From Gordonia otitidis NBRC 100426 (GTDB lineage: Bacteria > Actinomycetota > Actinomycetes > Mycobacteriales > Mycobacteriaceae), in the NCBI RefSeq assembly GCF_000248075.1, contig NZ_BAFB01000128.1, forward strand, positions 1-42,116: DNA of 42,116 nucleotides, read 5' to 3'. A program made the translations under genes and the position numbers. Within the stretch, counting starts at the first letter, position 1. Each line of letters starts with the position of its first letter. A model generated the notes under the pieces. That model did no database searches. It was not told the origin of the DNA and saw nothing but the letters and a program-made list of their open reading frames with translations. Of the stretch, positions 19,071 to 37,036 are shown one piece after another.

Positions 19071-20237
19071 TCAACGGAAGATCTCCTGCAATCGTGCGAT
19101 CCCAGCGTCGTACAGTCCCTCAACGGCCGTGACCACCTCCGGGGTCGCCGACAGGGTCGCATTCCACACGAACAGCGCACCGTCGCCGTCGAGTTCGGGC
19201 CCGACGGTGATGGTCGACTCGTAGGCGTCGAGTGGGATCGGGCCATCGAGATAGCTGTAGGTGTAGGTACGCCGCGCGTCGTCGTGTTCGACGATCCGCT
19301 CGTGCGCTGGCGAACCGTCGTCGAAGATCGCGGTGCGGACCTCACCGTCGACCGACGACGAGTCGATGCCGGGGATCCATCGATGTACGCCGCCGGTATC
19401 ACCGACAACTGCCCACACCTCGTCGGGTGTTGCTGGCAGGACGACAGATCGCAGAATCTGTGTCGATGCGGTTGTCATATCGTCCTCCAGGAGTGTGTTT
19501 TCCAACTGCAGTAGCCGAGTTGCGTCGACCCCCACGGATGCCAGCCACTGACGAGTACCGTTGTGGCGCAGATCCATCCATGCAAGGAATCGCAGGACTG
19601 TGGCGGGGTCCATCTGCATCGCCTCAGGTGGGTACACGTCGACGGCGTCGCCGTAACTCGCCATCTCACGCAGGCGACCCATCATGGCCGGAATGTCTTC
19701 GCTGCGCTGCGCGTAGTTGCGGCAGATGTCGCGACGTAGAACGCCTATCGAGTCGAGCACCATCGCCACGGCAACACCGGTGCGATCCTTACCCATGGTG
19801 CAGTGCACCATGGCGGGCAAACCGTCCCGGTCGAGCAGTGCGTCGATGAGCGCTCTGAAGGCGTCACACGCACCGAGATAGCCGAGGTACGTAGCCACTA
19901 GTGGATCGGCACCGGGCATGGGCGCCACCGCCGACCCCTCTGCGACGGGCGCACGAATCGCGAACGGAATGTTGAGTATCGCGACTTCCGTCGCGGAGAA
20001 GCCACCGCTGCCCTCGGCCGCTGCCTCGTAGTCGAGACGCAGATCGACGATCTGGCGGAGTCCCGTTCGCTCGACGAAGTGCCGCGCATCTGCCGCAGCG
20101 ACGAATTGTGGTGTCGCACTGCGGTACAACGCGCCGTCGATTACTCGTCTTCCGTCGCTTGTGCGCAGACCGGCGATCGGGCGAAATCCGAGCAGGCCGG
20201 CGGGCCCCTCGAGGCTCGATCCCACTGGTTCCCTCAT
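19071..20237 (-). CDS. Tyrosine phosphatase-SRPBCC fusion protein
   Basis: A 388-aa two-domain protein, the last gene of the long leftward operon. Residues 10-240 are a PtpB-like tyrosine/dual-specificity phosphatase: FRPIAGLRT, LYRSATPQ and the CX5R loop HCTMGKDRTG with Cys146 and Arg152. Residues 254-388 are an SRPBCC (polyketide cyclase/START-like) lipid-binding domain beginning MTTASTQILRSVVLPATPDE. An internal GGAGG stands 5 nt before the codon for Met254, so the second domain could also be made alone. ATG 20237 overlaps the thiolase stop by 4 nt. In an operon with dikinase-type genes, a small-molecule phosphate ester is a possible substrate; this is inference. Confidence 0.85.
   Translation of the reverse strand: MREPVGSSLEGPAGLLGFRPIAGLRTSDGRRVIDGALYRSATPQFVAAADARHFVERTGLRQIVDLRLDYEAAAEGSGGFSATEVAILNIPFAIRAPVAEGSAVAPMPGADPLVATYLGYLGACDAFRALIDALLDRDGLPAMVHCTMGKDRTGVAVAMVLDSIGVLRRDICRNYAQRSEDIPAMMGRLREMASYGDAVDVYPPEAMQMDPATVLRFLAWMDLRHNGTRQWLASVGVDATRLLQLENTLLEDDMTTASTQILRSVVLPATPDEVWAVVGDTGGVHRWIPGIDSSSVDGEVRTAIFDDGSPAHERIVEHDDARRTYTYSYLDGPIPLDAYESTITVGPELDGDGALFVWNATLSATPEVVTAVEGLYDAGIARLQEIFR
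19484..19488 (-). promoter_or_regulatory. Internal ribosome binding site for the SRPBCC domain
   Basis: GGAGG (complement of 19484-19488) lies 5 nt before an in-frame ATG at 19478. A separate 135-aa SRPBCC protein (19071-19478) could be produced from it. This may also be the trace of two genes fused by loss of a stop codon. Confidence 0.55.
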
Positions 20238-21370
20238 GCCGACAGCACCGTCACCACGCAGGCGTTGCCGTCCATGCCTGCGGCACCGCCACCCATGGTC
20301 TCGACCATGCCGACCCGATGCTTCTCAACCTGCCGTGGACCTGCCTCACCGCGGAGCTGCCAAACGATCTCGGCGAGTTGCGCGGTCCCGGTGGCACCGA
20401 GCGGATGCCCTCGTGACAAGAGTCCGCCACTCGGATTAACCGGTTGCGCACCACTTCTCGCGGTGTGACCCGATACCGCCAGATCGCCGCCCTTCCCTTC
20501 GTCGGCAACCCCGAGAGCTTCCAACGTCGTGATCTCGCCGATCGTGAAGGCGTCGTGCACCTCGAACACGTCGATCTCGCCGATCAACCGGCCGGCGCCT
20601 GCAAGCGCCTGCTCGCCGGCACGGCGTACGCACGCGAAGCCCCACACCTCGTCGTTGCGCTGATCCCATGGCTTACCCGACACCATTGCCGACGACTCCA
20701 CGAGCACGTCACGCTGCGTCCGACGTCCGCTGCCGATCACCATCGCGCCGGCGCCGTCCGTCGTCGGACAACACTGCAGCATGGTGAGCGGATCAGCGAT
20801 GGGCCGCGACCGCAGCACCTGCTCAACGGTTGGCGGCTCACGACGCAGGTGGGCACGCGGGTTGTCGACACCATTCGTCTTGTTCTTCACCGCGACTGCG
20901 GCCAACTGTTCGAGCGTGAGTCCGTAGACGTCCATGTAGCGGGCCGCCGTCAACGCGTACAGCCCCGGCAGCGGCAGACCGGTCGCCCCCTCGGGATCGG
21001 TCGCCTCCGGCACGATCGCTCCGGTGAACAGGGTCGACATCTGATCGATTCCGATGACAAGGACACAGCCGAATCGACCTTCCCGAACCGCTACAACTGC
21101 CTCATGATAGGCACTTGTGCCGCTCGCACAGGCGTTCTCGATCGTCCACATCGGTATCGCACCGATGCCCAGTCCCCGTTGGATGCGGGTCGCCACTCCC
21201 GGCGGACCGAACACCGATCCGACGACGATCGCCTCGATGTCGTCGGGTGTGACACCGGCGTCGCGGATCGCCTCGCTGACGGCACGCCATCCGAGCGCCT
21301 CGACACGTTGGTCGGTGAATACTCCGAAGTCGGATGTTCCGACCCCCCATACTGCGACATCGCCTCTCAT
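20234..21370 (-). CDS. Thiolase (SCP-x / lipid-transfer type)
   Basis: A 378-aa thiolase-fold enzyme. The nucleophile is Cys81 in ENACASGTS; the second and third active-site motifs are intact as HDAFTIGE and GHPLGATG, with a terminal MGGGAAGMDGNAC segment. With Cys and both His present, CoA-dependent cleavage or condensation is feasible, unlike aldolase-type relatives that have lost residues. Such thiolases work with the DUF35 OB-fold protein encoded immediately upstream (ATGA overlap at 21367-21370). In this operon it could cleave a beta-ketoacyl-CoA made by the carboxylase and ligase. The phosphatase-fusion gene overlaps its stop by 4 nt. Confidence 0.92.
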   Translation of the reverse strand: MRGDVAVWGVGTSDFGVFTDQRVEALGWRAVSEAIRDAGVTPDDIEAIVVGSVFGPPGVATRIQRGLGIGAIPMWTIENACASGTSAYHEAVVAVREGRFGCVLVIGIDQMSTLFTGAIVPEATDPEGATGLPLPGLYALTAARYMDVYGLTLEQLAAVAVKNKTNGVDNPRAHLRREPPTVEQVLRSRPIADPLTMLQCCPTTDGAGAMVIGSGRRTQRDVLVESSAMVSGKPWDQRNDEVWGFACVRRAGEQALAGAGRLIGEIDVFEVHDAFTIGEITTLEALGVADEGKGGDLAVSGHTARSGAQPVNPSGGLLSRGHPLGATGTAQLAEIVWQLRGEAGPRQVEKHRVGMVETMGGGAAGMDGNACVVTVLSA

Positions 21371-21831
21371 CGCGAAACTCTTTCTGTCACTGCTGTGGTG
21401 GCGTTGTGCGCGACGAGGTCGCCCGCCTCGTCACTGTCGAAGACGACGCGATCTCCAGCGTGCGGTGCTGGCTCTGCGGCGACGTGCACCAGTACGCGGG
21501 GCCCGTTGTCGACGTCGACGTATGCCAAGGCGAAGGGCGGGCGCCATCGGCCGACAGGCATCCGCACCGTCGTGGCTGCCCAGACGGAGCCCGACGGGGA
21601 GAACCCGGCGGGCTCGATCTGGCCGAAACACACCGGGCACCAGGGCACATCAGTCTGCGACAGCGCGTGAGCACATCGTGTGCACCGCGCACCCCGGAGG
21701 AAACCGTCGACGACCCGGGGTCGGGAGTCTGCAACCGACAGGCCACCCGCCTGTGCCCCGGGTCGCCTCTTGTTGGGACGGTCGGTCAGTTCGGACTTCT
21801 TCACATCGCTGCGTTTCTCGTCTGTCGGCAT
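21367..21831 (-). CDS. DUF35 Zn-ribbon/OB-fold protein, thiolase partner
   Basis: A 154-aa protein with a rubredoxin-like zinc ribbon (CTRCAHALSQTDVPWCPVC, two CxxC pairs near residues 49-68) followed by an OB-fold (GSVWAATTVRMPVG to DRVVFDSDE). DUF35 proteins form complexes with thiolase-fold enzymes and are thought to bind acyl-CoA. The first 40 residues are charged and probably flexible. GAGGAG lies 9 nt before ATG 21831. It starts 13 nt after the carboxyltransferase stop, and its stop overlaps the thiolase start by 4 nt, so a complex with the thiolase is likely. Confidence 0.9.
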   Translation of the reverse strand: MPTDEKRSDVKKSELTDRPNKRRPGAQAGGLSVADSRPRVVDGFLRGARCTRCAHALSQTDVPWCPVCFGQIEPAGFSPSGSVWAATTVRMPVGRWRPPFALAYVDVDNGPRVLVHVAAEPAPHAGDRVVFDSDEAGDLVAHNATTAVTERVSR

Positions 21832-21844
21832 CTCCCTGGTCTCC

Positions 21845-23344
21845 TCAGTGGTCTCCGTGAAGCGTCAGCTCGAACCCGCCGGATTCGATGTGCAGATACG
21901 CGCCGACCGATGTGGCGATGAGCTTCTTGATATTCGCGACCTCCCTGCTGCTCAGCCCGTAATCGACGGTGCGCTGCGGCGTTGCGCGCATCACGTCGAT
22001 GTCGTGCTCGGGCACGAGAAGTCGGAGTATCAGCTCGTCGTCGGAGATGTCCTTGCCGAACTTTTTCCGCAGTTCGGACAGCTCCGGTTGGGGCGGTTCC
22101 CAATCGCGGTAGGTCTTCGCCTTCGGGGAGTCCATGATCTTGTCCAGAACATTCTCATCGATCGGCGCCACCGAGTCGCCGTAGAAGCCGTTGGCGTAGA
22201 GCAATACCTCGTCGGGGACCACCGAATAACGGTTTCCGGTCACCACGTTCAGCACCGCCTGAGTGCCGACGAGCTGCGAGAACGGGGTGGCCATGACCGG
22301 ATATCCGAGTTCCTTGCGGATCGTGGACATTTCGTCGAGCACCTCCTCGAACCGGTCCTCCATTCCGCGGTCGCGCAGCTGTGCTTTGAAGGTGCCGGCC
22401 ATGCCCCCCGGAAGTTGGTGACGGTACTGGTAGAGCGAGAACTCGACGGGTGCCCCCACCGGCAGGTCGTCGAGACCCGCGACGTTGACCAGATGCTTCT
22501 CGACCGGTTCCAACCGTGAGTCGTCGATATCGACATCGAATCCTGCGTAACGCAGGTTGGCGACAGTGTTCTCCGTCGAGGGCAATGACACCCCTGCCGC
22601 CAGCGGTCTGCTCGCGCTGTGTACCCGGTCGGCACCGGCCAGTACCGCTTCGAGGTAGTTCATCGGTGACAGGGCGTTGTTCGAATGAAAGTGCGCCTCG
22701 ACGGGGAGATCGCCGGCCTCCGCCTTGATCGCCGCAATGAGGGTGCGAGTGCGCTCAGGCGTCAACAGGCCTGCTGCGTCCTCGAGTTCGATGCCATCGG
22801 CTCCGAGTGCGACGAGTTCACGCGTGCGTGCAGCGTAGTACTCGTCGGTGTGGTACGGGCTATCGGCGTAGAGGATGCACGGAAGTGCCTGGGCACCATT
22901 GGATTGCGCCACCTTGACCAAGCGGCCGATCTTGTCGGTGTTGAACAGACCGTCGTAGATCCAAAAGCTGCCGATGCCGTGCGCGCAGAGTCGCTCAACC
23001 CAGAGATCCATCACGCTGTCAGCGGTCAGGCCGAAGGTGACGATGCCGTTGCTTCGAGTACCTGCGCGCACCGTGGTGTGCGGCATGGCCTTCGACAGCG
23101 AGATCAACTGATCCCAGGGGTCCTCCTTGCAGTGCCGCACCAGGACCTCGAAGATCGAACTCCCCACCAGGTCGATCGTGCGAAACCCGGTGCGATCGAG
23201 TTCGGCGGCGATCGGCAGGCCGATCGACTTGGTCATGCGCATCCCCCACCAGCTCTGCGGCCCGTCGCGCAGTGTCTGGTCGACGATGTCGATCGTTCGC
23301 TTGCCGCCGACGGAACGGTCGGCAGAGTCGAGGTAACTACTCAT
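21845..23344 (-). CDS. Divergent biotin-dependent carboxyltransferase (pyruvate carboxylase/5S type)
   Basis: A 499-aa DRE-TIM-type carboxyltransferase expected to move carboxyl from carboxybiotin to an enolisable acceptor. Metal ligands align with transcarboxylase 5S: Asp27 (TLRDGPQS), His218 and His220 (AHFHSN). The normally carbamylated lysine is replaced: the IKDMAG motif reads LEDAAG (Glu188). By eye, the Arg of the FRIFD motif that contacts pyruvate carboxylate is Trp128 (FWIYD), and the catalytic Thr/Ser of PGGxxTN is Gly (PGGMAGTF). Arg26 and Gln30 are kept. These changes suggest a substrate other than pyruvate. It overlaps the biotin carboxylase gene by 4 nt and clearly forms one enzyme with it and the carrier protein. 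Confidence 0.88.
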   Translation of the reverse strand: MSSYLDSADRSVGGKRTIDIVDQTLRDGPQSWWGMRMTKSIGLPIAAELDRTGFRTIDLVGSSIFEVLVRHCKEDPWDQLISLSKAMPHTTVRAGTRSNGIVTFGLTADSVMDLWVERLCAHGIGSFWIYDGLFNTDKIGRLVKVAQSNGAQALPCILYADSPYHTDEYYAARTRELVALGADGIELEDAAGLLTPERTRTLIAAIKAEAGDLPVEAHFHSNNALSPMNYLEAVLAGADRVHSASRPLAAGVSLPSTENTVANLRYAGFDVDIDDSRLEPVEKHLVNVAGLDDLPVGAPVEFSLYQYRHQLPGGMAGTFKAQLRDRGMEDRFEEVLDEMSTIRKELGYPVMATPFSQLVGTQAVLNVVTGNRYSVVPDEVLLYANGFYGDSVAPIDENVLDKIMDSPKAKTYRDWEPPQPELSELRKKFGKDISDDELILRLLVPEHDIDVMRATPQRTVDYGLSSREVANIKKLIATSVGAYLHIESGGFELTLHGDH

Positions 23345-24780
23345 CTCGTCTCCTCACGAGTGGCGCGGAACTCGTCGGCACCCGTCTGGTCTATCCAGCG
23401 GGTCGTCATCAGTCCGTCGCGGAAAATACTGGCGTTCAACAGGAATCGACTGAAGTCGACGGTGGTGGTGACCCCGTCAACGTGCAACTCCGCAAGTGCG
23501 GCGTCGAGTCGGCTGAGTGCTGTATCGCGGGTGGGTCCGTAGGCGATCACCTTGGCGATCATCGAGTCGTAGTACGGGCTGATGACCGTGCCCGCACGGC
23601 AGTGGGAGTCGACGCGGATACCGATCCCCGACGGTGGCGCCCACGTCCGGACCGTGCCGGGCATCGGGATGAAGCCGCGCTCGGGTGACTCGGCCATCAC
23701 CCGTGCCTCCACTGCGTGTCCTGCGACACGAACGTCGTCCTGCCCGAAGGACAGCGGTAGTCCGGCAGCCACCCGTATTTGCTCGGCGACGAGGTCGATT
23801 CCCGACACCAGTTCACTCACGGGGTGCTCCACCTGGATGCGCGCGTTGAACTCGAGGAACGCGAACACATCGGTGTCGGTGTCGTAGACGAACTCGACGG
23901 TACCCGCACTGTCGAGGTCGATCGCCTGCGCGAATCGTACTGCGGCGGCGTGAATCTCGGCACGCGTTCTAGCCGGAAGCGCCGGCGCCGGAGACTCCTC
24001 GATCACCTTCTGATGACGCCGCTGCGCGCTGCAGTCCCGCTCGCCGACATGCACCACCGATCCGTGTTTGTCACCGATGACCTGTACCTCGATGTGACGC
24101 GCACGCCCGATGAACCGTTCTACGTAGATCCGCCCGTCACCGAACGCGGCGGTAGCCTCCGCGATCGCGATGGGCAGTCGGCGACGTAGTTCGAAGTCGT
24201 CTGCGACCACCGACATGCCACGTCCACCGCCACCGGCAACAGCCTTGATCAGGACGGGGTAGCCGATGGTCGCAGCGGCCGCGATTGCCTCGTCCGGACT
24301 CGCGGTGATGTCGGAACCGGATAAGACCGGAACGCCTGCTTCCCTCGCGATCTCGCGTGCCTGGGCCTTGTCGCCGGTCCCCGCAACGATGGCGGGGCGG
24401 GGCCCGATGAAGACGAGTCCCTCCTCGACGCAGCGTCGTGCGAAATCAGGATTCTCCGAGAGGAAACCGTATCCGGGATGGATGGCGTCACAGCCGGTCC
24501 CGAGAGCCGCCGCGAGTACGGCATCGGCGTTCAGATAACTCGCCGACGCCGCGGCGGGTCCGATGCAGATTGCGCGATCGGCCATTTCCGGAGCCATCGT
24601 GTCGCGATCGGCCTCCGAGGTCACCACGACGCTCTCGATCCCCAGCGCACGGCACGCACGCACGACCCGCACGGCTATCTCGCCACGATTGGCGACGAGC
24701 ACACGCCGAATCAGTGCACCGACCGGCGTTCGGGCCTGCGCGGTGACACGACGATCTTGCAGCGCCTGTGGACTACTCAT
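23341..24780 (-). CDS. Biotin carboxylase subunit
   Basis: A 479-aa ATP-grasp enzyme that carboxylates biotin using bicarbonate and ATP. Seen in order: the N-terminal RRVLVANRGEIAVRVVRACR fold, HPGYGFLSENPDFAR, the glycine-rich ATP loop KAVAGGGGRGM, the VERFIGRARHIEVQVIGDKHG segment, ERDCSAQRRHQKVIEE, and the catalytic EFNARIQVEHPVSE motif (usually EMNTRLQVEHPVTE). The C-terminal domain is complete. ATG 24780 is chosen; it overlaps the carrier-protein stop by 8 nt, and the frame upstream of it is antisense-type sequence inside the carrier gene. It acts with the neighbouring carrier and carboxyltransferase. Confidence 0.94.
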   Translation of the reverse strand: MSSPQALQDRRVTAQARTPVGALIRRVLVANRGEIAVRVVRACRALGIESVVVTSEADRDTMAPEMADRAICIGPAAASASYLNADAVLAAALGTGCDAIHPGYGFLSENPDFARRCVEEGLVFIGPRPAIVAGTGDKAQAREIAREAGVPVLSGSDITASPDEAIAAAATIGYPVLIKAVAGGGGRGMSVVADDFELRRRLPIAIAEATAAFGDGRIYVERFIGRARHIEVQVIGDKHGSVVHVGERDCSAQRRHQKVIEESPAPALPARTRAEIHAAAVRFAQAIDLDSAGTVEFVYDTDTDVFAFLEFNARIQVEHPVSELVSGIDLVAEQIRVAAGLPLSFGQDDVRVAGHAVEARVMAESPERGFIPMPGTVRTWAPPSGIGIRVDSHCRAGTVISPYYDSMIAKVIAYGPTRDTALSRLDAALAELHVDGVTTTVDFSRFLLNASIFRDGLMTTRWIDQTGADEFRATREETR

Positions 24781-25372
24781 GGGGCCGGATGAGGAAGAGC
24801 GTCTGACCGAACTCCACCATGTCGGCGTTGGCGGCACGGATGGCCACCACCTCGCCGGAGACATCGGTCACGACCGGATTCATCAGTTTCATCACCTCGA
24901 CGATGCCGAGCTGATCACCCGCTGACACCGTGTCACCCACGGCGACGAACGGCGGCGACCCAGGATCGGGAGCGACCCAGAACGCACCGACCGTCGGCGA
25001 GGTCACGCTGATCAGCCCGGTCTCGTCGAGTTCGACCTCGCCGGTCGAGTTCGGCACTCTCGGACCCGGTGTGACGGGTGTGGGTGCGGTCGGAGCTGCA
25101 ACGGCACGCGCGGTGGTGGTGAACGGTGCCGCCGTGGGAGCGACCTGCGACGGCACCGGGGCTGGTGGGGCTGCGGCATCGCGCGGTTGCGTGCCGGCGG
25201 ATTCCGGAGGTGGGCCGTCCTTGCCGACGGCGATCGTGACATCGCCGACGTCGAGGCGCATTCCCGCCCATCCCGACGCAGCGAAGGTGCGCAGGATCTC
25301 GTTGATGTCATCGGGCCCGAGTCGCGGTGTTCCCGAAATCGACTGTTCGGCTGTTGCGGCCTGCTCACTCAT
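24773..25372 (-). CDS. Biotin carboxyl carrier protein
   Basis: A 199-aa carrier. The C-terminal 80 residues are a biotinyl domain with the modification site EVMKLMNP (Lys162, 37 residues from the end; the usual motif is EAMKM or EAMKLMN). An Ala/Pro/Thr-rich swinging linker (residues 55-110) precedes it, and the N-terminus (DINEILRTFAASGWAGMRLD) resembles AccB-type docking segments. It carries carboxybiotin between the carboxylase and carboxyltransferase encoded just downstream. The start overlaps the dikinase-like gene's stop by 4 nt (25369-25372), tying carboxylation to the phosphotransfer enzyme. Confidence 0.93.
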   Translation of the reverse strand: MSEQAATAEQSISGTPRLGPDDINEILRTFAASGWAGMRLDVGDVTIAVGKDGPPPESAGTQPRDAAAPPAPVPSQVAPTAAPFTTTARAVAAPTAPTPVTPGPRVPNSTGEVELDETGLISVTSPTVGAFWVAPDPGSPPFVAVGDTVSAGDQLGIVEVMKLMNPVVTDVSGEVVAIRAANADMVEFGQTLFLIRPHE

Positions 25373-27111
25373 CGGTCAGCCTTTCGGTGTGCCACCGCGG
25401 CGAGAAGTACCGGCAGCGGTGTGGTCGTCACGATCACCTCGACACCAGCGTCGAGTGCTGCGGATACCCCGGCGTCGGTCTCGAAGTACGCGCCCGTCAC
25501 GACGCGGCAGTTCTCGGGAATCTCTACGGTCTCCCCGCCGGACGCGGCGATCGCGGCGTCCGCGTCGAACACCTCGACACCCTGCGCGGTTTCGGACACC
25601 GCCCGGAGCGGGGCGATCGCGGCGGCCCAGCGTGCCAGTGCTGCGAGATCGGCGTCGTCGTCGACTCGTGTCGCCCTTCCGCCGATCTCACCGTCGAATA
25701 TGCGGGCGCCGGTGGCGTCGACCGTAACGATGCGGCCGGCGAGTGCTGGCGCGGTTCCCGCACCGCAACCCACGACGCAGGGCGTATCGAGCGCCCTACT
25801 GACCACCGCCGCATGCGATGTGGCACCACCGTGCTCGGTGACAACCGCCGAGGCGGCGATCATGCCGTGTACGTCCTCCGGACTCGTCGATTCACGCACG
25901 AGAATCGATCCCGGATTCCGTTGTGCCTCATCCGCAGTGAGTACGACTCGTCCCACGGCGTATCCCGGACTCGCCGAGACCCCAGTGGCCAGTGGTTGCG
26001 TGTCACCCACCGCATCGGCATCGATACTCGGCCTCAGCAGGTGTCGGACCTGATCGGCGGTGACACGCGAGCAGGCTGTTGCCTCCTCAATGGCGTTCTC
26101 GCCGACCAGCGCCGCTGCGATACGGACCGCGGCCCTCGCGGTGCGCTTGGCCGGCCTCGACTGCAGCAGGTAGAGCTCGCCGTGCTGCACGGTGAACTCG
26201 ATGTCCTGCGCGTCGGCGCCCTCGCGGTCAAGTAGATCTGCTGCGGCGATGAGCTCGTCGTGCAGGTACGCGCGATTGCTCGCCAGCCACGCCAATGGCT
26301 GCGGCGTGACGCGCCCGGAGACGACGTCTTCGCCCTGCCCGCGGGGTAGGTACTCGCCGTATGGGTCCTTGGCACCCGTGAGCGGATTGCGAGTGAACAG
26401 CACACCGGTACCAGAATTTTCGTCGAGGTTGCCGAACACCATCGCCTGTACCGTCACGGCGGTGCCGATATCGTCGGGTATGCCGTAGTGCGCCCGGTAG
26501 GCCTTCGCCCGACGTGATTGGCTGGAATCGAACACCGCAGCAACGGCTTTGCGCAGCGCGGTCATCGGATCGGTTGGAATCGTGTCGCCGGTCTCGTCGG
26601 CGATGGCGGCCGTTACGGCTGCGGTGTCCGGCAAATCCTCGAGATCCTCGACGCATCCCGACACGAGCTTTCCGTAGAGGGCGACGAACCGGCGGTGCAC
26701 GTCGGCTGCGAAGTCGGCGTGCGAGGTCTCCGCGGCAAGCGCGCTCTCGGTGTCCGGGTTGATGCCGAGATTGAGGATCGTGTCCATCATCCCCGGCATC
26801 GACACCGCAGCACCCGAGCGCACCGACACCAGCAGCGGATGCTCACCGCGGCCGAAGGTACGTCCGGTGCGATCCTCGAGATAGGAGACCCCCTCTACGA
26901 TCTCGGCGAAGAGTTCGTCAGACAGTCGCTTGCCCGAGGCGAAGTAGTCGGCGCACGACGTCGTGGTCACGACGAAGGCCGGCGGTACGCGCAGGCCGAG
27001 TGCACTCATGCGCCACAGGCTCCAGGCCTTACCACCTACCAGTTCTCGCGCCGGTTCGTCGTCGAGCTCGGTGATGCGGAGCACCGACGGATTGGTCACC
27101 TGTGCAGTCAT
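25369..27111 (-). CDS. Pyruvate-phosphate-dikinase-like ATP-grasp/swivel protein without PEP barrel
   Basis: A 580-aa protein. Residues 1-330 are the PPDK ATP-binding domain: Lys28 (GGKAWSL), Arg98 (SVRSGA), Glu305, Gln317 and Arg319 keep the spacing of PPDK Lys22, Arg92, Glu323, Gln335 and Arg337 as I recall it. Residues 375-480 are the swivel domain with phosphohistidine His433 in GGATSHAA. The C-terminal PEP/pyruvate barrel (about 350 aa of a usual 870-900) is absent, replaced by about 90 unassigned residues. Short forms exist in mycobacteria (PpdK). It probably phosphorylates its own His with ATP and passes phosphate to a separate acceptor subunit. ATG 27111 overlaps the upstream stop by 4 nt. 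Confidence 0.88.
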   Translation of the reverse strand: MTAQVTNPSVLRITELDDEPARELVGGKAWSLWRMSALGLRVPPAFVVTTTSCADYFASGKRLSDELFAEIVEGVSYLEDRTGRTFGRGEHPLLVSVRSGAAVSMPGMMDTILNLGINPDTESALAAETSHADFAADVHRRFVALYGKLVSGCVEDLEDLPDTAAVTAAIADETGDTIPTDPMTALRKAVAAVFDSSQSRRAKAYRAHYGIPDDIGTAVTVQAMVFGNLDENSGTGVLFTRNPLTGAKDPYGEYLPRGQGEDVVSGRVTPQPLAWLASNRAYLHDELIAAADLLDREGADAQDIEFTVQHGELYLLQSRPAKRTARAAVRIAAALVGENAIEEATACSRVTADQVRHLLRPSIDADAVGDTQPLATGVSASPGYAVGRVVLTADEAQRNPGSILVRESTSPEDVHGMIAASAVVTEHGGATSHAAVVSRALDTPCVVGCGAGTAPALAGRIVTVDATGARIFDGEIGGRATRVDDDADLAALARWAAAIAPLRAVSETAQGVEVFDADAAIAASGGETVEIPENCRVVTGAYFETDAGVSAALDAGVEVIVTTTPLPVLLAAVAHRKADR

Positions 27112-27716
27112 TCCTCCCGCTCCTGCCCCATCATGCGCAGCAGGTGCTCGTGCATCTGGTACCAGACCGTGTGATAAGAATCGAGCCGCACGTTGCTGAC
27201 ATAGTCCCGGTCGCCACGGTCGACACGTTGCAGCGCGACGTCGAGCCTCGAGACGAACCGCTTCGTGATCGGATCCGAGCCTGCGAACGGTGCCAGGACC
27301 GATTCCGCGCGTTCGTGCAGACGCGCGAGCCTGTCGATGACCTTGTCGTCGTAGTCGGCATCGGAATGATCGTTCGGCTGTTGCACCCCATCGACGGTGA
27401 CGGTCTGCCACGACGTCATGAGTGAGAGCATCTGCTTGTTGACGCCCTTCTCGAAGTCCGCAAGGGCAGCAGCGAGTTCGGCGTCGTTGCGCTGCTCGGC
27501 GAATGCCTCGGAATACACCGAGTCGAGGTGTTCCCGGCCTGCGGGAGTGATCATGTATGAGCCTCGTGCGGCCATCACCTGGGCGTCGGCGACCGCGGCC
27601 TCCAGGTTCTGCGACACCGTCACGTCATCCTGCTCGATGATGTCGACGAGCTGTTCGGCGCTCGCGAGTTGCTTCAGCGTGAGGCCGTGCAGGGTCAGAT
27701 CTTTCGGGTCAAGCAT
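27108..27716 (-). CDS. Small helical protein between ligase and dikinase genes
   Basis: A 202-aa protein of no family I can name. GGAGG stands 6 nt before ATG 27716. The first 75 residues (LHGLTLKQLASAEQLVDII to MITPAGREHLDSV) look like a winged-helix fold in which ITPAGRE is the wing; the rest is a long helical bundle (LADFEKGVNKQMLSLMTSW; DKVIDRLARLHERAESVL). No DNA-binding role need follow: its overlap with both the ligase (8 nt) and dikinase (4 nt) genes suggests a subunit of the dikinase complex, as small third subunits accompany phenylphosphate synthase. This is inference. Confidence 0.75.
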   Translation of the reverse strand: MLDPKDLTLHGLTLKQLASAEQLVDIIEQDDVTVSQNLEAAVADAQVMAARGSYMITPAGREHLDSVYSEAFAEQRNDAELAAALADFEKGVNKQMLSLMTSWQTVTVDGVQQPNDHSDADYDDKVIDRLARLHERAESVLAPFAGSDPITKRFVSRLDVALQRVDRGDRDYVSNVRLDSYHTVWYQMHEHLLRMMGQEREE

Positions 27717-30713: not shown

Positions 30714-30727
30714 GTCGGCAGGTCTTT

Positions 30728-31432
30728 CTACTTGTCGAGTTTCCAGATGCGGGCGTGGCCGGTGTCTCCGGTCTCGTATGCGTCGGCGGCGGGCGGAGCC
30801 ACGGACGTCTCGATCTCAACGCGGTCACCGTCGGAGAGACCGTCGATTCGGCAGTTCATCAGCGTCGGCACCCCGTACTCGCGGGCGAGGATGCCCAGGT
30901 GCGAGCGCACCGTTCCGCCCAGACAGATGACACCGTGGAAGCCCTCGAGGATGGGCGCGGTGAGTGTGCCGCCCGAATCGTCGATGACGGCGATAATGTT
31001 CTCCGGCACGCCGCTGGCCAGCAGCTCCATGACCTGCTCGATCCGCGAGATGCGCGCGACGATGCCCACCGTGTTGCTAGTCGTGGTCTGCACGTTGTCG
31101 CCACGCCCCGATAGCGACTGATCACTGCTGCCCTCGTCGGCGACGAAACCCTTGTCGCCGCCCTCGGGACGCCGATACTTCTCCGGTTCGGAGTCCAAGG
31201 ACGCCGTCGCGGAGAACTCGAAGCGATACCCGCTGTCGAGCGCGTCCTGCTCGATGGCGCGCGCATCGTCGAGCGTGAACAGGTCAGCGGAGAAGACGTC
31301 GCGCTTCCAGTCGAAGTCCGCATTGGATGTACGGGTTCCGGTGAGTTCCCGGATTGCACCGTTGTAGCGCTTGGGCAGTGGGAGGGTCTCTGACGTTCCC
31401 CACTTGGGGGCTATCGTTGACGAGTCGGACAT
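30728..31432 (-). CDS. Stand-alone PEP-utiliser swivel (phosphohistidine) protein A
   Basis: A 234-aa protein, first gene of the leftward operon; GGAG lies 7 nt before ATG 31432. Residues 125-215 are a PEP-utilising-enzyme mobile domain: a strand IIAVIDDSGGTLTAPIL, then GVICLGGTVRSHLGILAREYG with candidate phosphohistidine His178, and VPTLMNC. The Thr that normally sits two residues before the His (TSH) is Arg here (RSH). There is no ATP-grasp or PEP-binding domain, so it must be charged by another protein, most likely the dikinase-like protein at 25369-27111. The N-terminal 120 residues are polar and unassigned. The shared 18-bp element lies 129 nt upstream. Confidence 0.85.
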   Translation of the reverse strand: MSDSSTIAPKWGTSETLPLPKRYNGAIRELTGTRTSNADFDWKRDVFSADLFTLDDARAIEQDALDSGYRFEFSATASLDSEPEKYRRPEGGDKGFVADEGSSDQSLSGRGDNVQTTTSNTVGIVARISRIEQVMELLASGVPENIIAVIDDSGGTLTAPILEGFHGVICLGGTVRSHLGILAREYGVPTLMNCRIDGLSDGDRVEIETSVAPPAADAYETGDTGHARIWKLDK

Positions 31433-31613: not shown

Positions 31614-32396
31614 ATGGCAATCACCACTTCCACCTGGACCCCGCCTGCGATCCTGGACGTCGAGGACTACCGCAAGGCGTTCGAGATCATCTCGGGTTGC
31701 CACGACGCCTCGACACTCGCCCAGTTCCGCGAGGGCCTCGTCGAGGCGCTGTGTCGGCATCTCGATGTCTCCAACGTGTCGTTCTTCTCGGGGTCGACCT
31801 TTCACCTCGTGTTCGAGGACACGACACCGCTGACGTCGGGCATGACCGCGAAGATGTTGCCCGAGTATCAGGAGCGCTGGGCGTCACATGACGTCTTCGG
31901 GTCTCCGCCCGCCGTGCGACAACTGTTGACCTCCTCGGTCGCGTCACTCGCCGAGCTCGAGAACCAGCACCGTCTGCCGTCGTCGTCGGAGGCATACGTC
32001 CGGCACTTCCTGCACGAGCGCTGGCATGTCGGATCTGCTGCGGGAATGCGTCTTCCGCTCGCGGGTGGACGCATCGCGCTCATCGGACTGTTCGGCAAGA
32101 ACGCGGCCGACCTCGGACCGCACGAGATCGGTGTACTGCGTCTCGTCGGTCAGCAACTCGCACCGGTGACTAAGCGGCTACCCATCGAGCCGGCACTGCA
32201 GGCCGTCCGTAACCTCACGGGACGTCAACGCGAAGTGGTGAAGCTCGTCGCCGACGGTCAGAGCAACGCGCAGATCGCCGACATTCTGTGTATCGCAGAG
32301 GATTCGGTGAAGAAGTACGTCACCCGAATCCTCCACCAGACCGGCTGTCAGTCACGACTGGAGCTGGCGCTCATCGCACGGGACGCCACTCTCTGA
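31614..32396 (+). CDS. LuxR-family transcriptional regulator of the locus
   Basis: A 260-aa regulator. Residues 20-185 are a GAF-like sensory region (LVEALCRHLDVSNVSFFSG; MRLPLAGGRIALIGLFGK) with no recognisable ligand motif. Residues 195-257 are a LuxR/GerE helix-turn-helix: LTGRQREVVKLVADGQSNAQ, then IADILCIAEDSVKKYVTRIL. AGGAG is 8 nt before ATG 31614. There is no phospho-receiver domain, so it probably senses a small molecule such as the pathway substrate. It lies between the two divergent gene sets, and the 18-bp elements near 31570 and 32446 are its likely binding sites. Confidence 0.9.
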   Translation: MAITTSTWTPPAILDVEDYRKAFEIISGCHDASTLAQFREGLVEALCRHLDVSNVSFFSGSTFHLVFEDTTPLTSGMTAKMLPEYQERWASHDVFGSPPAVRQLLTSSVASLAELENQHRLPSSSEAYVRHFLHERWHVGSAAGMRLPLAGGRIALIGLFGKNAADLGPHEIGVLRLVGQQLAPVTKRLPIEPALQAVRNLTGRQREVVKLVADGQSNAQIADILCIAEDSVKKYVTRILHQTGCQSRLELALIARDATL

Positions 32397-32437: not shown

Positions 32438-32455
32438 TGTCCCCCAAAGTGGACT
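32438..32455 (+). promoter_or_regulatory. 18-bp shared element upstream of the rightward operon
   Basis: TGTCCCCCAAAGTGGACT, identical at 17 of 18 positions to the element at 31561-31578 read in the direction of its operon. It ends 68 nt before the start at 32524. It stands immediately upstream of where a -35 would be if TATTCT (32479-32484) is the -10, the usual place for an activator. Confidence 0.7.
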
Positions 32456-32478
32456 GCCGGTTGATGTGATCTGGTTCA

Positions 32479-32484
32479 TATTCT
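32479..32484 (+). promoter_or_regulatory. Candidate -10 hexamer for the rightward operon
   Basis: TATTCT begins 23 nt after the 18-bp element and lies 39 nt before the start codon. TTGATG at 32461 is only 12 nt upstream and cannot serve as a normal -35. Confidence 0.4.
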
Positions 32485-32523
32485 GCGAAGACCCAATGCT
32501 CGCAGAAAGGGCAAGGACACATC

Positions 32524-32904
32524 ATGTCACCATCGCTCGACCACGCTGGTACCGGCGTCAATCTCTTTGCTACAGCCAATCTTTCGGGTACCGCCCGTTG
32601 GTTCGAAGACACCTCGGACGTCCTCGACATCGACGACGACGACCTCGAGGACACGATCGCCTTCGTCCACAAGGGGGGCATGACCTTCTTGTCCCCCATC
32701 CTCCCCGACCTCAAAGGCATCGTCTGCACCGCGGGAAGCCGTGAGTCACACCTCGCCATCCTCTCGCGCGAATCCGCGGTTCCGTGTGTCCTCGCAGCGC
32801 AATTGGCGGCGGACGTTCCCTCCGGCGCACAGGTGACGCTCGGACTCACCGACGCCGAGACCGCCACGATCGACATCGTCGAGTCACCGGCGGTGATCGC
32901 GTGA
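32524..32904 (+). CDS. Stand-alone swivel (phosphohistidine) protein B
   Basis: A 126-aa protein consisting almost only of the PEP-utiliser mobile domain: a VLDIDDDDLEDTIAFVHKGG segment, FLSPILPDLKGIVC and GSRESHLAILSRESAVPC with candidate phosphohistidine His76. The position of the His and the FLSPIL motif match the first 120 residues of the fused protein at 34097-35824 exactly, so this gene plus the next one is a split version of that protein. AGAAAGGG lies upstream of ATG 32524. Its TGA overlaps the next start (GTGA at 32901-32904). It needs an external kinase, probably the ATP-grasp protein of the leftward operon. Confidence 0.85.
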   Translation: MSPSLDHAGTGVNLFATANLSGTARWFEDTSDVLDIDDDDLEDTIAFVHKGGMTFLSPILPDLKGIVCTAGSRESHLAILSRESAVPCVLAAQLAADVPSGAQVTLGLTDAETATIDIVESPAVIA

Positions 32905-34100
32905 GCTCTCCGACCGTCGCCCACAGCCAGCGCCTGCTGACTGATCCGGACTATGAGCCGACGCTCGAGGAATGAAACGAGCTCATCCGCGAAGGCGGCC
33001 GCGCATACAAATCCGAGCTCTCCAGGCGGACCGTCTTCGAGTCCGAACTGTTCGGCATGAACACCTACATCATCATGTCGATGATGGAGGACTACCTGCG
33101 GGTTCCCGAACGTATCCGGGTGATCACCGACAAGATGTCGCCAGAAGAGTTGGTGGCCAACAGCGTTCCCATCGGAACCAAGCGCAGCTTCATCAACCTC
33201 GCTGCCATGCCACTGCACTACCTGACGGGACGTGAGCTCTACGTCGACCTCGGCGAGAACACCCTCTCCGACGGACTCGACGAACAACTCGACGTCCTCC
33301 GATTCTGGCGTCGGGCGACCATCGCCATGCGCACCGACGGCGTGCTGTACAACATGGACGCCACACCGCCCAACAGTTCACACGTCGTCGATCGCGACAT
33401 CCTCGAGTCGATCGTCTCCCAGCTCGAACCCAACGACGCAGAGACCACCACCGCCCTGCGGAAGTTCGCCGCGCGCCTGACCGCGTACGCCTTCCTGGAG
33501 AACTGCGATGCGCGTACCGCGGTCTGTGACACCGGCCCGTACGACCTCGGTGACGGCACGTTTCTCGCCTTGCGCGAACTGTGCTGCGACGGTGTCGGCG
33601 ACTTCGAGTGGCTCGACGGCATCCGAGATACGTTGCCCCATCACAACTTCGTCCTTGCCTACCGCCTGCCATCGACGGTGGCGATGGACAACAACGTGTG
33701 GGGCACGGCATGGTTCACCCCGAGCGACTACCTGTCGGACGTGATCGCCGCCCGTGTGTTCACCACCGACGACACCGGTGAACTCCACGCGCTGAGCCGC
33801 GACGACGTCGTCGACATGACAGCGCACATCCGCAAGGCGCATCGCGCGCTGTATGCCCGCCTGGCTGAGACCGACCCAGAACTGCGCAATCTGTACGCCA
33901 CGGAGATGTACAGCTGGAAGCTCAAGGCGTGGGCGCGGATTGCGGGATGCTACGACGACATCGATTGGTCGATCAGTCCGTCGATCCTCGCGTCGTACGA
34001 GCGATTCAGTGATCCCGACACAGCTCTCGCGCTCATCGGCGGGATCTTCGTGCCCGCGGATCGGGACAGTTGCTTCCGCCCAATCGGAGGTGCCCGGTGA
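32901..34100 (+). pseudogene. Unknown protein, family member B, interrupted by in-frame TGA
   Basis: The frame from GTG 32901 is open to the stop at 34100 except for a TGA at 32973-32975 (codon 25). Sequence on both sides is in the same frame and conserved: E-E-stop-NELIREGG aligns with DWWNYIRTVG of the fused paralog, so the TGA stands where a Trp (TGG) is expected. The rest carries the family landmarks LFGMNTYIIMS, LTGRELYVDLG, LRFWRR, DTGPYDLGD, WLDGIRDTLPHHN and ATEMYSWKLKAWARIAG. Reinitiation at ATG 33057 would give a 347-aa protein lacking about 50 residues. A point mutation, sequencing error or stop readthrough are the options. Confidence 0.75.
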
Positions 34101-35824
34101 CCACCACCGTTCCCGTCCGCAGAGTGGGGTTCAGTTCGTACGAATTCGCGCCGATACACGGCGTCATCCGCCGCTTCCGTACCCCGCAGGACGTGTTGGA
34201 CTCCTTCGACCTCGATCTAGATGGCGTCATCGCTCTCGTCGATTCCGGCGGCACCACGTTCTTGTCCCCGATCCTCGGCCGACTGCGCGGCATAGTGTGC
34301 ACCTCTGGTACTACCCGTTCGCATCTGGCGATCGTGTCCCGCGAGTACGAGGTCCCGTGCCTGCTATCCGTCGACCTCGGCTCCTGGATCCCTGAGAATG
34401 GTGAAGAGGTCACCATGACTTCGGATGCGTTAGGAAAGGGAGCGCTGGTCAAAGAGAACACCATCGGTGTCGACGACCCGGGTGCGCAGCATGCAATCAG
34501 AGAACCCAACGACGACTCTGTGACCCATACGCCAATCGAGCTCGAGGGACCACGTGACGTGAGGACGTCAGGTTCGGCGGTGACCGACTGGTGGAACTAC
34601 ATCAGGACGGTCGGAGACGATATCGCGCGCAAACCGTTTCCGTCATCCGTCGGTCCGGACACAGTCGCCCGCTTGTGTGCGCAACCACTCACCGACGAAG
34701 GGCTCAACGACCTGATTCTCCACATGGGTCGATCGTTCAAGCCCGAGATGACGCGGCGCTCAGGCTTCACGTCTGAGTTGTTTCCGATGATGCCGTACAT
34801 CGCCATGTCGACCATCGAGGACTTCCACACGTACCCGCCTCGCGTGCGTGCCATCGAAGCGGAGCGTCGAGCAGAGGACATCGGCGCCGAACTTCGTCGC
34901 CGGCCGGGGTTGATCAGTCCATTGTGGATCTGGATGGTTGGCTACCATTACCTTTGCGGTCGCGAGCAACTCATCACGCTCGGTCGGTTGCGCCCTGATG
35001 AGGACATCGACGATATTCGCACTGTGATCGACTTCTGGCGACGTCTTTCGCTCGGATACCGGGGTGACGGGACACTCGACTACAAGGACGCGGGATTCAC
35101 AAATCGCTACCTTCCAGCCCCCGAAGTAGACGCTCTACGAGCTGAGCTACGACCACTCTTCGATGCGGGGAGTCGAGATCTTAAGCAACTCAACGCGACG
35201 CTGTCCGCATACGGGTTCATGTACTTCACCGATTCCCGAGTAGGAATCTGTGACAATGGGCCATACGCAGATGGGCCCGACCACGCGATTCTGATTCGCG
35301 ACTTCCTGTCTCTGGATTCCGGACAGTTCTCCTATCCGTGGGCCCGAGACTGCGATCTGCGACTCAGCGGCGTGACCATGGCGCTGAGGTTTCCACGAAG
35401 AGCGTTCGGCTATTTCGAGATCAACGACTGGGGAACGACTTTCACCGAGCCTGATCAATTGCTCGGTGCCGTCACCGACGCAGCTGTCATCGGGTGGCGC
35501 GCAGACGGAAGCAGCGTCGTCCTCGAGTCCGCAGCATGGGGTGATCTCGAGAAAGAGATCACACAACACCACCTACGGCTCTATCAGGATTTCACCGGTA
35601 TGGACCGGCAGGATCGGATCTTCTCCGCCACCAGGATGTACAGCTGGGGGTTGCGCCCTTTCGCAAAACAGGTTGGCATCGATGACGAGATCGACTGGTC
35701 CATCTCCGAACGGACGATGTCGCTTTATCCAGATCCACTTGATGACGACGACCAGGCCGGAGCCCTCTTTGGTGGCTCCGTGATCGCTCACTCAAGACCG
35801 AGCGCATTCACTGCCCTGCACTGA
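34097..35824 (+). CDS. Swivel domain fused to unknown domain, family member C
   Basis: A 575-aa protein. Residues 25-115 are a mobile phosphohistidine domain (DGVIALVDSGGTTFLSPIL, GTTRSHLAIVSREYEVPC, His76). A 45-residue acidic linker follows. Residues 165-560 are the unknown family domain: DWWNYIRTVG, LFPMMPYIAMS, LCGREQLITLG, IDFWRRLSLGYRGDG, CDNGPYADGPD and ATRMYSWGLRPFAKQVG, ending with DEIDWSIS. GGAGG 6 nt upstream supports GTG 34097, which overlaps the previous stop. Its layout resembles the His-bearing large subunit of phenylphosphate synthase, which is phosphorylated and then phosphorylates phenol; that comparison is from memory. It may hold the acceptor substrate. Confidence 0.85.
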   Translation: MTTTVPVRRVGFSSYEFAPIHGVIRRFRTPQDVLDSFDLDLDGVIALVDSGGTTFLSPILGRLRGIVCTSGTTRSHLAIVSREYEVPCLLSVDLGSWIPENGEEVTMTSDALGKGALVKENTIGVDDPGAQHAIREPNDDSVTHTPIELEGPRDVRTSGSAVTDWWNYIRTVGDDIARKPFPSSVGPDTVARLCAQPLTDEGLNDLILHMGRSFKPEMTRRSGFTSELFPMMPYIAMSTIEDFHTYPPRVRAIEAERRAEDIGAELRRRPGLISPLWIWMVGYHYLCGREQLITLGRLRPDEDIDDIRTVIDFWRRLSLGYRGDGTLDYKDAGFTNRYLPAPEVDALRAELRPLFDAGSRDLKQLNATLSAYGFMYFTDSRVGICDNGPYADGPDHAILIRDFLSLDSGQFSYPWARDCDLRLSGVTMALRFPRRAFGYFEINDWGTTFTEPDQLLGAVTDAAVIGWRADGSSVVLESAAWGDLEKEITQHHLRLYQDFTGMDRQDRIFSATRMYSWGLRPFAKQVGIDDEIDWSISERTMSLYPDPLDDDDQAGALFGGSVIAHSRPSAFTALH

Positions 35825-35886
35825 ACACATTCCACGAATCGAAGCGCACACCAATATGAACTCCCGTGTGCTCGGAAAGGTATCTC

Positions 35887-37036
35887 ATGAAGCAAGACAT
35901 GCAGCTCGTTACCCCCTCGGACGAGTTTCTGATCCACCAGACCGCCGAAACATTCGCTACAGTATCGCAAGCCGACTACTCGTGGACCGAGAAAGTCTGG
36001 CTCTCGATGTTCGCACGTGACGGCTCGCTGCAGATCGACTTCGGTCTGGGAAAATACATCAACCGCAACGTGTTCGATGGCTTCGCCGGGATCTCGCGGG
36101 GTGTCGAGCAAATCACCGTCCGCGCAAGTCGCGAGTACGACGATGATCCCGAACGTCTGGGCGTAGGACCAATTGATTATGAGATCATCGAGCCGATGCG
36201 GGCTCTACGGTGCACCCTCCGCGAAAACGACGTGCAACCCCTGAGTTTTGACGTCGTGTTCACTCCGATCATGGCGCCCTTTCTCGAGCGTAAAGATGCT
36301 CAGCGCGGCAGCGACGGTTTCCGCGTAGCGTCTGACCTTCGCCGTTTCCACCAGCTCGGAACAGTGTCGGGCTGGGTCGAAGTCGACGGCAAACGTACCG
36401 ACATCACCGACGAGACATGGCTCGGTTACCGCGACCGGTCGTGGGGCGTACGAATGGATGTAGGCTCCCCCGCGCCTGATGTGAAAGCCCCTGACCGCAT
36501 GAACCAGAACTTCATCCTGACCTGGAGCCCCATGTACTTCGAACCGGCAGACGGAAGCGATCCGTACGAGATCCACCACTATCTGCAATGGGTCGACGGA
36601 GAGGTGCACTACTTCTCGGGCTTCCTCAACCACGCAGACGGAAGTCAGCAATCGTTGTATGGCATCGCAGACGATCTGAAGTACGACGTTCAGACCAGGC
36701 GACTCCTCGGCGGGACCATCACTTTCGATGCAGGTTGGGGGGGATCGACGGGTGATCGAGATCGAGCCGGTGTCAGACACCGGATTCCATCTTGGCACCG
36801 CGAACTACTTCGGATTCAAGGGCGATAGACACGGTCAGTGGCACGGCAACGACTACACCTCCGGTGAACGCTACGAGGACATGACCGAGCGGGACACGCT
36901 TCTCGAGGTGCATCAGCTGCGCGATTGCGTGATCCGCTGCTCAGAGGGCGACGCGACTGGCTACGGAATCTTCGAGTCCATCGTCATCGGCGGCCACCCG
37001 CGCTATGGACTCAGCGGCGACGATTCATTCCTCTGA
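35887..37036 (+). pseudogene. CrtC/AttH-like lipocalin-fold protein, frameshifted at a G7 run
   Basis: ATG 35887 follows GGAAAGG. The first frame reads to GTITFDAGW and then leaves homology at seven consecutive G (36737-36743); removing one G joins it to the second frame, continuing DRRVIEIEPVSDTGFHLG to the stop at 37036, for about 382 aa. The protein resembles hydroxyneurosporene-synthase/AttH-type and DUF7064/7065 proteins, with the signature GYRDRSWGVR near residue 185 and a HHYLQWVDGEVHYFSGF strand pair. Such proteins hydrate or bind hydrophobic molecules. It is the last gene of the rightward set. Without the frame repair, it makes a truncated 313-aa product. Confidence 0.75.

What the first reader, a model, noticed from the sequence alone, without database searches (positions are those of the whole stretch)
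19071..37036. Dikinase-plus-biotin carboxylase locus: a possible undescribed phosphorylation-dependent carboxylation pathway
Seen: one operon encodes a PPDK-like ATP-grasp/swivel protein, free swivel proteins, biotin carboxylase, carrier, carboxyltransferase, acyl-CoA ligase, thiolase with DUF35 partner and a phosphatase. Known: phenylphosphate synthase and the CreHI cresol system phosphorylate phenols with split PEP-synthase-like subunits; ATP-dependent ketone carboxylases pass through an enol phosphate. Inference: a ketone is converted to an enol phosphate (or a hydroxyl is phosphorylated), carboxylated by biotin, activated with CoA and thiolysed, for example methyl ketone to 3-keto acid to acyl-CoA plus acetyl-CoA. 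I know of no described pathway that combines split dikinase and biotin carboxylation.
Basis: partly seen in the sequence, partly recalled or inferred. Interest (0 to 1): 0.93.

Follow-up and report, generated by a model that had tools for sequence, protein, structure and literature searches.

The report
Kinase-primed biotin ketone-carboxylation gene cluster
This cluster encodes a biotin carboxylase next to the parts of an ATP-powered phosphate-transfer machine, and together they are predicted to tag a hydroxy-ketone with phosphate, add CO2 to it and cut it into CoA units; the strategy is already published for lignin ketones, but this kinase looks like a separate, widespread type that the papers searched do not describe.

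Summary
A minus-strand operon (31432-19071) encodes swivel, no-Pfam subunit BD503, CoA ligase, 202-aa protein P204, PPDK-like ATP-grasp/swivel AG, biotin carrier, biotin carboxylase, carboxyltransferase, DUF35, thiolase and a tyrosine-phosphatase/SRPBCC fusion; a divergent plus-strand unit holds a second swivel/BD set with two broken genes. The linkage is conserved: 39 of 42 long loci drawn by BD503 alone, from Actinomycetota and alpha-, beta- and gammaproteobacteria, also hold swivel, AG, biotin carboxylase and carboxyltransferase. But 'no described pathway' is wrong: the Hpe pathway (PMC9618137, 2022) joins split dikinase HpeHI to biotin carboxylase HpeCBA. What differs is the kinase: AG is PPDK-lineage (361 bits to PPDK, 29 to HpeI); BD503 shows no similarity to an HpeH-like protein and its confident model matches no PDB fold; two histidine swivels are conserved; P204 and BD occur fused. 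The carboxyltransferase has Glu (relatives Glu or Tyr) where pyruvate-carboxylase-type enzymes have Lys. I favour phosphorylation of a hydroxyl, then carboxylation, dephosphorylation, CoA ligation and thiolysis over an enol phosphate; the substrate is unknown. New variant of a known kind; interest 0.62.

The parts
30728..31432 (-). SW251: stand-alone His-swivel (PEP-utilizers) protein, 234 aa; catalytic His178 candidate
   Evidence: Pfam PF00391; His178 in 82 of 82 aligned rows
29202..30713 (-). BD503: putative substrate-binding subunit, no Pfam, no PDB fold match
27709..29205 (-). AMP-forming acyl-CoA ligase (GTG start likely)
   Evidence: PF00501 240 bits
27108..27716 (-). P204: 202-aa kinase-associated protein, winged-helix-like N-terminus plus helices
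   Evidence: no Pfam; fused to BD503-type proteins elsewhere; model
25369..27111 (-). AG: PPDK-lineage ATP-grasp + His swivel, 580 aa from the likely start, no PEP-binding domain found
   Evidence: (NF004531 680 bits, cut-off 456); His433 in 63 of 64 rows
24773..25372 (-). Biotin carboxyl carrier protein, motif EVMKLM, Lys162
23341..24780 (-). Biotin carboxylase
21845..23344 (-). Carboxyltransferase, PYC_OADA/5S type, Glu188 at the position of the pyruvate-carboxylase Lys
21367..21831 (-). DUF35 / OB-fold thiolase partner
   Evidence: PF01796
20234..21370 (-). Thiolase with ACASG and GHPLGA motifs
19071..20237 (-). Tyrosine-phosphatase-like (HCTMGKDRT) fused to SRPBCC domain
   Evidence: PF13350 and PF10604; motif
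31614..32396 (+). LuxR-type regulator between the two units
   Evidence: PF00196
32524..32904 (+). SW126: second stand-alone swivel
   Evidence: PF00391; 73% to the R. oxybenzonivorans protein
32901..34100 (+). Second BD protein, interrupted by an in-frame stop near its N-terminus
34097..35824 (+). Swivel + BD fusion
   Evidence: PF00391; BD part 32% to BD503
35887..37036 (+). DUF7065-like protein (weak match, under Pfam's cut-off), split by a frameshift near 36.72 kb

Best explanation
The locus encodes a split dikinase, a three-subunit biotin carboxylase, a CoA ligase, a thiolase pair and a phosphatase, which are predicted to work as one catabolic route that likely phosphorylates a hydroxyl of a hydroxy-ketone so that the phosphorylated ketone would be carboxylated, dephosphorylated, bound to CoA and cleaved. 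Shown: the genes, their order, its conservation across phyla, catalytic motifs, and fusions that tie kinase parts together. Inferred: AG would take phosphate from ATP onto its own swivel His433 and pass it (directly, or through SW251 His178) to a substrate held by BD503, with P204 as scaffold; BC/BCCP/CT would then carboxylate the alpha carbon of the ketone with one more ATP; the tyrosine-phosphatase-like protein would remove the phosphate; the ligase would make the beta-ketoacyl-CoA; thiolase/DUF35 would release acetyl-CoA (or a longer acyl-CoA) and a shortened acyl-CoA. The order of the last three steps and the substrate are untested.
For: Domain content. Linkage SW+AG+BC+CT in 39 of 42 long loci, from Actinomycetota and three proteobacterial classes. 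Fusions: BD503+P204 in P0088 and P0098 (P204 part 41% and 45% identical to the window's); swivel+BD+P204 in one 793-aa protein of R. opacus B4. P204 next to AG in 16 of 23 loci drawn by P204 alone. Swivel His conserved, 82 of 82 and 63 of 64 rows; biotinyl Lys, PTP CX5R and thiolase Cys/His motifs present. A phosphatase, PTP (15) or SurE (12), two loci with both, in 25 of 42 long loci. Carboxylase homologous to that of an Hpe-type cluster: BC 52%, CT 37%, BCCP 33%. Precedent: HpeCBA carboxylated the phospho-ketones, not the free ones, and HpeD then dephosphorylates (PMC9618137).
Against: 17 of 42 long loci show no PTP domain, SurE or HAD gene (one query each for SurE and HAD, two for PTP) within the stretch held. 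BD503 is not detectably related to an HpeH-like protein, so a phenolic or even hydroxylated substrate is not supported by homology. Related CTs occur without a kinase found nearby (L107; L105, L109; L132, L133, L138), so the carboxylase type alone does not need phosphorylation. No activity is measured for any protein of this kind that I could find.
Confidence: 0.56

Rival explanations
1. Enol-phosphate route: the dikinase would phosphorylate the enol of a plain ketone, as PPDK does with pyruvate, and the carboxyltransferase would carboxylate that enol phosphate.
For: AG is PPDK-lineage, and PPDK makes an enol phosphate (recalled chemistry). In CTs of these loci the Lys position is Glu or Tyr, with Asn for the second His in 27 of 64 rows, which could fit a substrate that needs no metal-assisted enolisation. 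17 of 42 long loci show no phosphatase.
Against: Phosphatase genes in 25 of 42 long loci would have no role; biotin carboxylation would be redundant with an enol phosphate; AG lacks the PEP/pyruvate domain; the window CT keeps Asp/His/His plus Glu, a possible metal site.
Confidence: 0.18
2. The kinase set is regulatory: AG would act like VadK of M. tuberculosis, an autophosphorylating His kinase that modulates partner enzymes, here the carboxylase or ligase.
For: AG exceeds the cut-off of NF004531, a 534-position PPDK-named family that covers nearly all of AG; VadK is reported to autophosphorylate and to interact with methylcitrate-cycle enzymes (PMC12636432, part 1 of 9 and passages); P204 has a winged-helix-like part.
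Against: A dedicated second swivel and a conserved 500-aa BD subunit fit transfer to a small molecule better; the fusions seen join swivel, BD and P204, not carboxylase parts.
Confidence: 0.1
3. Kinase and carboxylase act on different substrates or at different times, for example phosphorylation only traps or detoxifies an alcohol taken up by diffusion, and the carboxylase is an ordinary 2-oxoacid or acyl-CoA carboxylase in the same catabolic cluster.
For: In R. opacus B4 the swivel/BD/P204/PTP set occurs without a carboxylase in the 25-kb stretch held; carboxylase sets of this kind occur without a kinase. Trapping is one reason offered for phosphorylation in Hpe (PMC9618137).
Against: Overlapping genes in the window and 39 of 42 linkage across phyla; the genome has a separate pyruvate-carboxylase-like gene (L102).
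Confidence: 0.12

Closest known systems
Hpe pathway, Rhodococcus rhodochrous GD02 (HpeHI, HpeCBA, HpeD, HpeE, HpeF; PMC9618137, PMC12167813, parts 1-4 of 6 of each read)
   Same: Split dikinase + three-subunit biotin carboxylase + phosphatase + AMP-forming CoA ligase + a beta-ketoacyl-CoA cleaving enzyme in one cluster.
   Different: Kinase lineage (PPDK-type AG with own swivel, not HpeI), BD503 without detectable similarity to an HpeH-like protein, extra P204 and second swivel, PTP instead of HAD phosphatase, thiolase/DUF35 instead of a CouO-type hydrolase; CT Lys replaced relative to an Hpe-type cluster (L142; HpeB itself not seen).
VadK / Rv1127c (truncated PPDK; PMC12636432, part 1 of 9 and passages)
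   Same: ATP-grasp + His swivel without pyruvate/PEP domain; VadK has an operonic partner Rv1126c that improves its solubility, as AG has P204. That Rv1126c is a P204 relative was not tested.
   Different: AG sits in a catabolic operon with a putative substrate-binding subunit and a second swivel.
CreHI, phenylphosphate synthase PpsAB, rifampin phosphotransferase (as described in PMC12167813)
   Same: Dikinases in which a His swivel carries phosphate from an ATP-grasp domain to a small molecule.
   Different: The ATP-grasp part is of PPDK lineage here and the putative substrate part matches none of them that could be tested.
Pyruvate carboxylase subunit B / oxaloacetate decarboxylase alpha / transcarboxylase 5S
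   Same: Family of the carboxyltransferase.
   Different: Lys to Glu or Tyr change; clustered with CoA ligase and thiolase.

Membership tests
Hpe pathway | HpeI-type ATP-grasp kinase subunit | tested here: not met
   AG: 361 bits to PPDK 1kbl, 29 bits to HpeI 9goj (9GOJ named as HpeI); an Hpe-type control subunit scores 262 bits to 9goj
Hpe pathway | HpeH-type binding + C-terminal swivel subunit | tested here: not met
   hhalign of A2 with the HpeH-like protein of L142: probability 0.3%; HpeH is reported to resemble RPH (PMC12167813), and the BD503 model gave no confident PDB match, RPH not among the 49 listed
Hpe pathway | Homologous three-subunit biotin carboxylase | tested here: met
   BC 52%, CT 37%, BCCP 33% to the Hpe-type cluster L142; GD02 sequences themselves not available
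Hpe pathway | HAD (NagD-like) phosphatase | tested here: not met
   PTP in the window; one HAD query (from L104) hits 0 of 42 long loci
Hpe pathway | AMP-forming CoA ligase | tested here: met
   PF00501
Hpe pathway | CouO-type beta-ketoacyl-CoA hydrolase | tested here: inconclusive
   the minus-strand genes include none by Pfam, a thiolase/DUF35 pair stands instead; no CouO query was run on the genome
Hpe pathway | Acts on 4-hydroxyacetophenone or acetovanillone | not testable with these tools
   needs assay
VadK-type truncated PPDK | ATP-grasp and His swivel, no PEP/pyruvate domain | tested here: met
   PPDK_N and PEP-utilizers only; NF004531 679.9 bits over cut-off 456; matches to full-length PPDK chains end at residue 464 or earlier. 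That NF004531 is the Rv1127c family is recalled.
VadK-type truncated PPDK | Regulates methylcitrate-cycle enzymes | not testable with these tools
   needs assay
[quoted passage not shown]
   only PPDK_N and PEP-utilizers in AG
Pyruvate carboxylase-type carboxyltransferase | Lys (carbamylated metal ligand, recalled) in the K-D-x-x-G motif | tested here: not met
   Glu188; of 64 CT rows, 29 Glu, 29 Tyr, 5 Lys, 1 gap
Rifampin-phosphotransferase-type dikinase | RIF-binding-type substrate domain | tested here: not met

The most novel reading that the evidence does not exclude
A separate, widespread branch of small-molecule dikinases: a PPDK-derived ATP-grasp/swivel engine, a second His-swivel, a winged-helix scaffold (P204) and an interchangeable substrate subunit of new fold relay phosphate from His to His onto a metabolite, and prime it for a biotin carboxylase whose metal site has been rebuilt. 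It would be an independent invention of Hpe-style kinase-primed carboxylation, apparently more common than Hpe itself, and would give the VadK family a metabolic setting.
Probability: 0.45. Interest if true: 0.78.

Novelty: new variant of a known kind. Interest (0 to 1): 0.62.

Why it matters
It would show that phosphorylation-primed carboxylation of ketones is not a rarity of a few lignin degraders but a common strategy with at least two unrelated kinases. It gives a large family of uncharacterised proteins (BD503: 996 hits; those of the 120 listed that bear a name are 'hypothetical' or 'uncharacterized') a testable role, offers a possible two-histidine phosphorelay to small molecules that can be assayed directly, and suggests a catabolic setting for the truncated-PPDK (VadK) family.

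Tried and rejected
Ordinary pyruvate or acyl-CoA carboxylase: rejected as first choice, since the genome has another pyruvate-carboxylase-like gene (L102), the CT lacks the usual Lys and linkage to the kinase is kept across phyla.

Orthologue of Hpe: rejected.

A first guess that BD503 and SW251 would be the halves of a split HpeH, and that the 717-723 aa relatives (four of the 120 listed) are BD503+swivel fusions: rejected; the two that I aligned are BD503+P204 and BD503 is unlike the HpeH-like protein.

Linking the Glu/Tyr change strictly to phosphorylation: not held up. L107, L132, L133 and L138 have Glu with no kinase part found in the stretch held, and L136/L137 carry a Gly-type CT beside or near a kinase set.

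Substrate from neighbours: SDR (18 of 42 long loci), acetoacetate-decarboxylase-like (7 of 42), biotin synthase (1 of 42; 3 of 80), acyl-CoA dehydrogenase and zinc alcohol dehydrogenase genes occur but do not fix it. R. oxybenzonivorans is, by its name and recall, an oxybenzone degrader, suggestive only; its own paper was not found in the library.

Counts corrected or dropped: '2nd BD 42 of 42' is a cross-hit of the query to BD503 itself and is not used. The phosphatase count (27 of 42) took in two loci (L010, L016) that match only the SRPBCC half of the query; the recount with the PTP domain alone gives 25 of 42. For that the best explanation went from 0.58 to 0.56 and the enol-phosphate rival from 0.17 to 0.18. 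Ligase and thiolase counts take any relative in the stretch, paralogues included.

Paper searches that showed no description of this locus (listings and abstract starts seen). The MarK paper (PMC12624787) is not held; the Acv paper was not read. I first took the Tm-1-like gene of L104/L106 as Acv-type; PMC13101465 (passages) says that the Acv operon is homologous to Hpe, so L104/L106 may instead be MarK-like (untested).
Full report
WHAT IS THERE. The stretch 19071-37036 holds two divergent gene sets. The minus-strand set runs SW251, BD503, CoA ligase, P204, AG, BCCP, BC, CT, DUF35, thiolase, tyrosine-phosphatase/SRPBCC fusion; 8 of the 10 junctions overlap by 4-8 bases (starts and stops). Two members have no Pfam family: BD503 and P204. 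AG likely begins at 27111, behind a ribosome-site-like GGAG stretch and overlapping the end of P204, not at 27411 as the longest ORF suggests. The plus-strand set is a LuxR regulator, a second swivel, a second BD protein, a swivel+BD fusion and a DUF7065-like protein.

IS THE LINKAGE REAL. A scan of GTDB representative genomes with a BD503 alignment gave 150 loci, of which the best 80 were kept. In the 42 with at least 20 kb of sequence, SW is present in 42, P204 in 40, AG in 40, an AMP ligase in 40, BCCP in 40, BC in 39, CT in 40 and some thiolase in 40; SW+AG+BC+CT together in 39. The three exceptions are L046 (BC not found), L048 and L073. Hosts among the 80 include Gordonia, Nocardia, Rhodococcus, Pseudonocardia, Amycolatopsis, Acidithrix, Rhodospirillales and sphingomonads, a Sterolibacteriaceae and a Rhodocyclaceae, and several gammaproteobacteria (record titles). 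Within the window's own genus it is rare: of 25 genomes of that genus searched, only the window's own has a full-length match; 5 of the other 24 have partial matches at 23-33% identity. Of 298 genomes of the order (the window's own included), 18 have a CT match at E <= 1e-60; two others than the window's (G159, G280) carry the locus with 82-83% identical CT, and G047 and G211 carry a more distant form with two CTs each.

THE CARBOXYLASE. BCCP has the biotinyl motif EVMKLM. The CT is of the PycB/OadA/5S type. Where pyruvate carboxylase has a Lys (carbamylated metal ligand, recalled), the rows give 29 Glu, 29 Tyr, 5 Lys and 1 gap of 64, one best CT per locus. The 5 Lys rows are the genome's own pyruvate carboxylase and four comparison clusters (L104, L105, L106, L109). 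The second His of the motif is Asn in 27. An Hpe-type cluster also keeps Lys (L142). The change is not confined to kinase-linked CTs: L107, L132, L133 and L138 carry Glu with no kinase found in the stretch held, and L136/L137 carry a Gly-type CT.

COMPARISON WITH HPE. Its identity as Hpe-type rests on this architecture. Against it the window scores BC 52%, CT 37%, BCCP 33%, while BD503 shows nothing (hhalign probability 0.3%). So the carboxylase is shared by descent, and the substrate part of the kinase is not detectably so.

PRIOR ART. The Hpe pathway (PMC9618137, parts 1-4 of 6 read) and HpeHI (PMC12167813, parts 1-4 of 6 read) describe phosphorylation of 4-hydroxyacetophenone and acetovanillone, carboxylation of the phosphorylated ketone only, and dephosphorylation. 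PMC9618137 also notes that the XccBCA genes of A. aromaticum cluster with hpeHI homologues, and that diverse bacteria have other combinations of hpe homologues (its supplement was not seen). PMC13101465 (passages only) adds the Acv and MarK variants and says that kinase and carboxylase genes cluster in 52 of 836 cases. None of my searches listed a paper on the present locus; subscription papers are mostly not held.

MECHANISM. By analogy with Hpe I favour: phosphorylation of a hydroxyl; alpha-carboxylation of the ketone; dephosphorylation; CoA ligation; thiolysis. The phosphatase supports this over an enol phosphate: PTP domain in 15 and SurE in 12 of 42 long loci, either in 25, none found in 17. 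The counter-argument is that AG is PPDK-like and the CT metal site is changed; hence 0.18 for the enol-phosphate rival. The substrate is unknown; phenolic ketones are only the analogy.

VERDICT. Real, conserved, conceptually anticipated by Hpe, but with a kinase that fails the Hpe membership tests and that I could not find described. New variant of a known kind; interest 0.62.

Noticed in passing
window 32901-34100 (+) and 35887-37036 (+): The second BD gene has an in-frame TGA at about 32973 and the DUF7065-like gene is split by a frameshift near 36.72 kb, while the R. oxybenzonivorans relatives read through; either decay of the plus-strand set in this strain or assembly errors.
   Followed up: partly
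window 41266-42116 (-): C-terminal part of another dikinase of the RPH/PEP-synthase type with swivel (5fbs 95 bits), cut by the window's end; the only PPDK_N matches found in the genome are AG and the one on contig C136.
   Followed up: partly
G000 contig C136 (L152): A second AG relative (46%) shares a contig with a P204 homologue, a CoA ligase, and by eye an SDR and a cytochrome P450: perhaps another substrate kinase set.
   Followed up: partly
L099 (R. opacus B4 pROB02) 11320-13701: One 793-aa protein joins swivel, BD and P204 parts, next to a tyrosine phosphatase and near a DUF7065-like protein, with AG nearby but no carboxylase in the stretch.
   Followed up: partly
L108 (Methylibium petroleiphilum PM1 plasmid) 8701-11590: BD-like, swivel and P204-like proteins stand a few kb from a B12-binding/AMP-binding/MeaB/mutase set.
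   Followed up: no
L105, L109, L139: CT-BCCP-BC sets of the same carboxylase kind without a kinase found, in L105 near an acetoacetate decarboxylase gene, in L109 beside 3-oxoacid CoA-transferase and thiolase genes: possible kinase-free biotin ketone carboxylases.
   Followed up: no
L132-L134 (G159), L135-L137 (G211, G047): Genomes with two or three different CTs within about 10-70 kb, as if CTs were exchangeable specificity parts.
   Followed up: no
L104 and L106 (plasmids of Sphingomonas bisphenolicum AO1 and Pseudomonas putida YC-AE1): Tm-1-like ATP-binding protein + BCCP-BC-CT + HAD phosphatase: maybe a MarK-like single-component kinase version.
   Followed up: no
window 19071-20237 (-) versus L097, L100: Phosphatase and SRPBCC protein are one fused gene in the window but two adjacent genes in two Rhodococcus plasmids.
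   Followed up: yes
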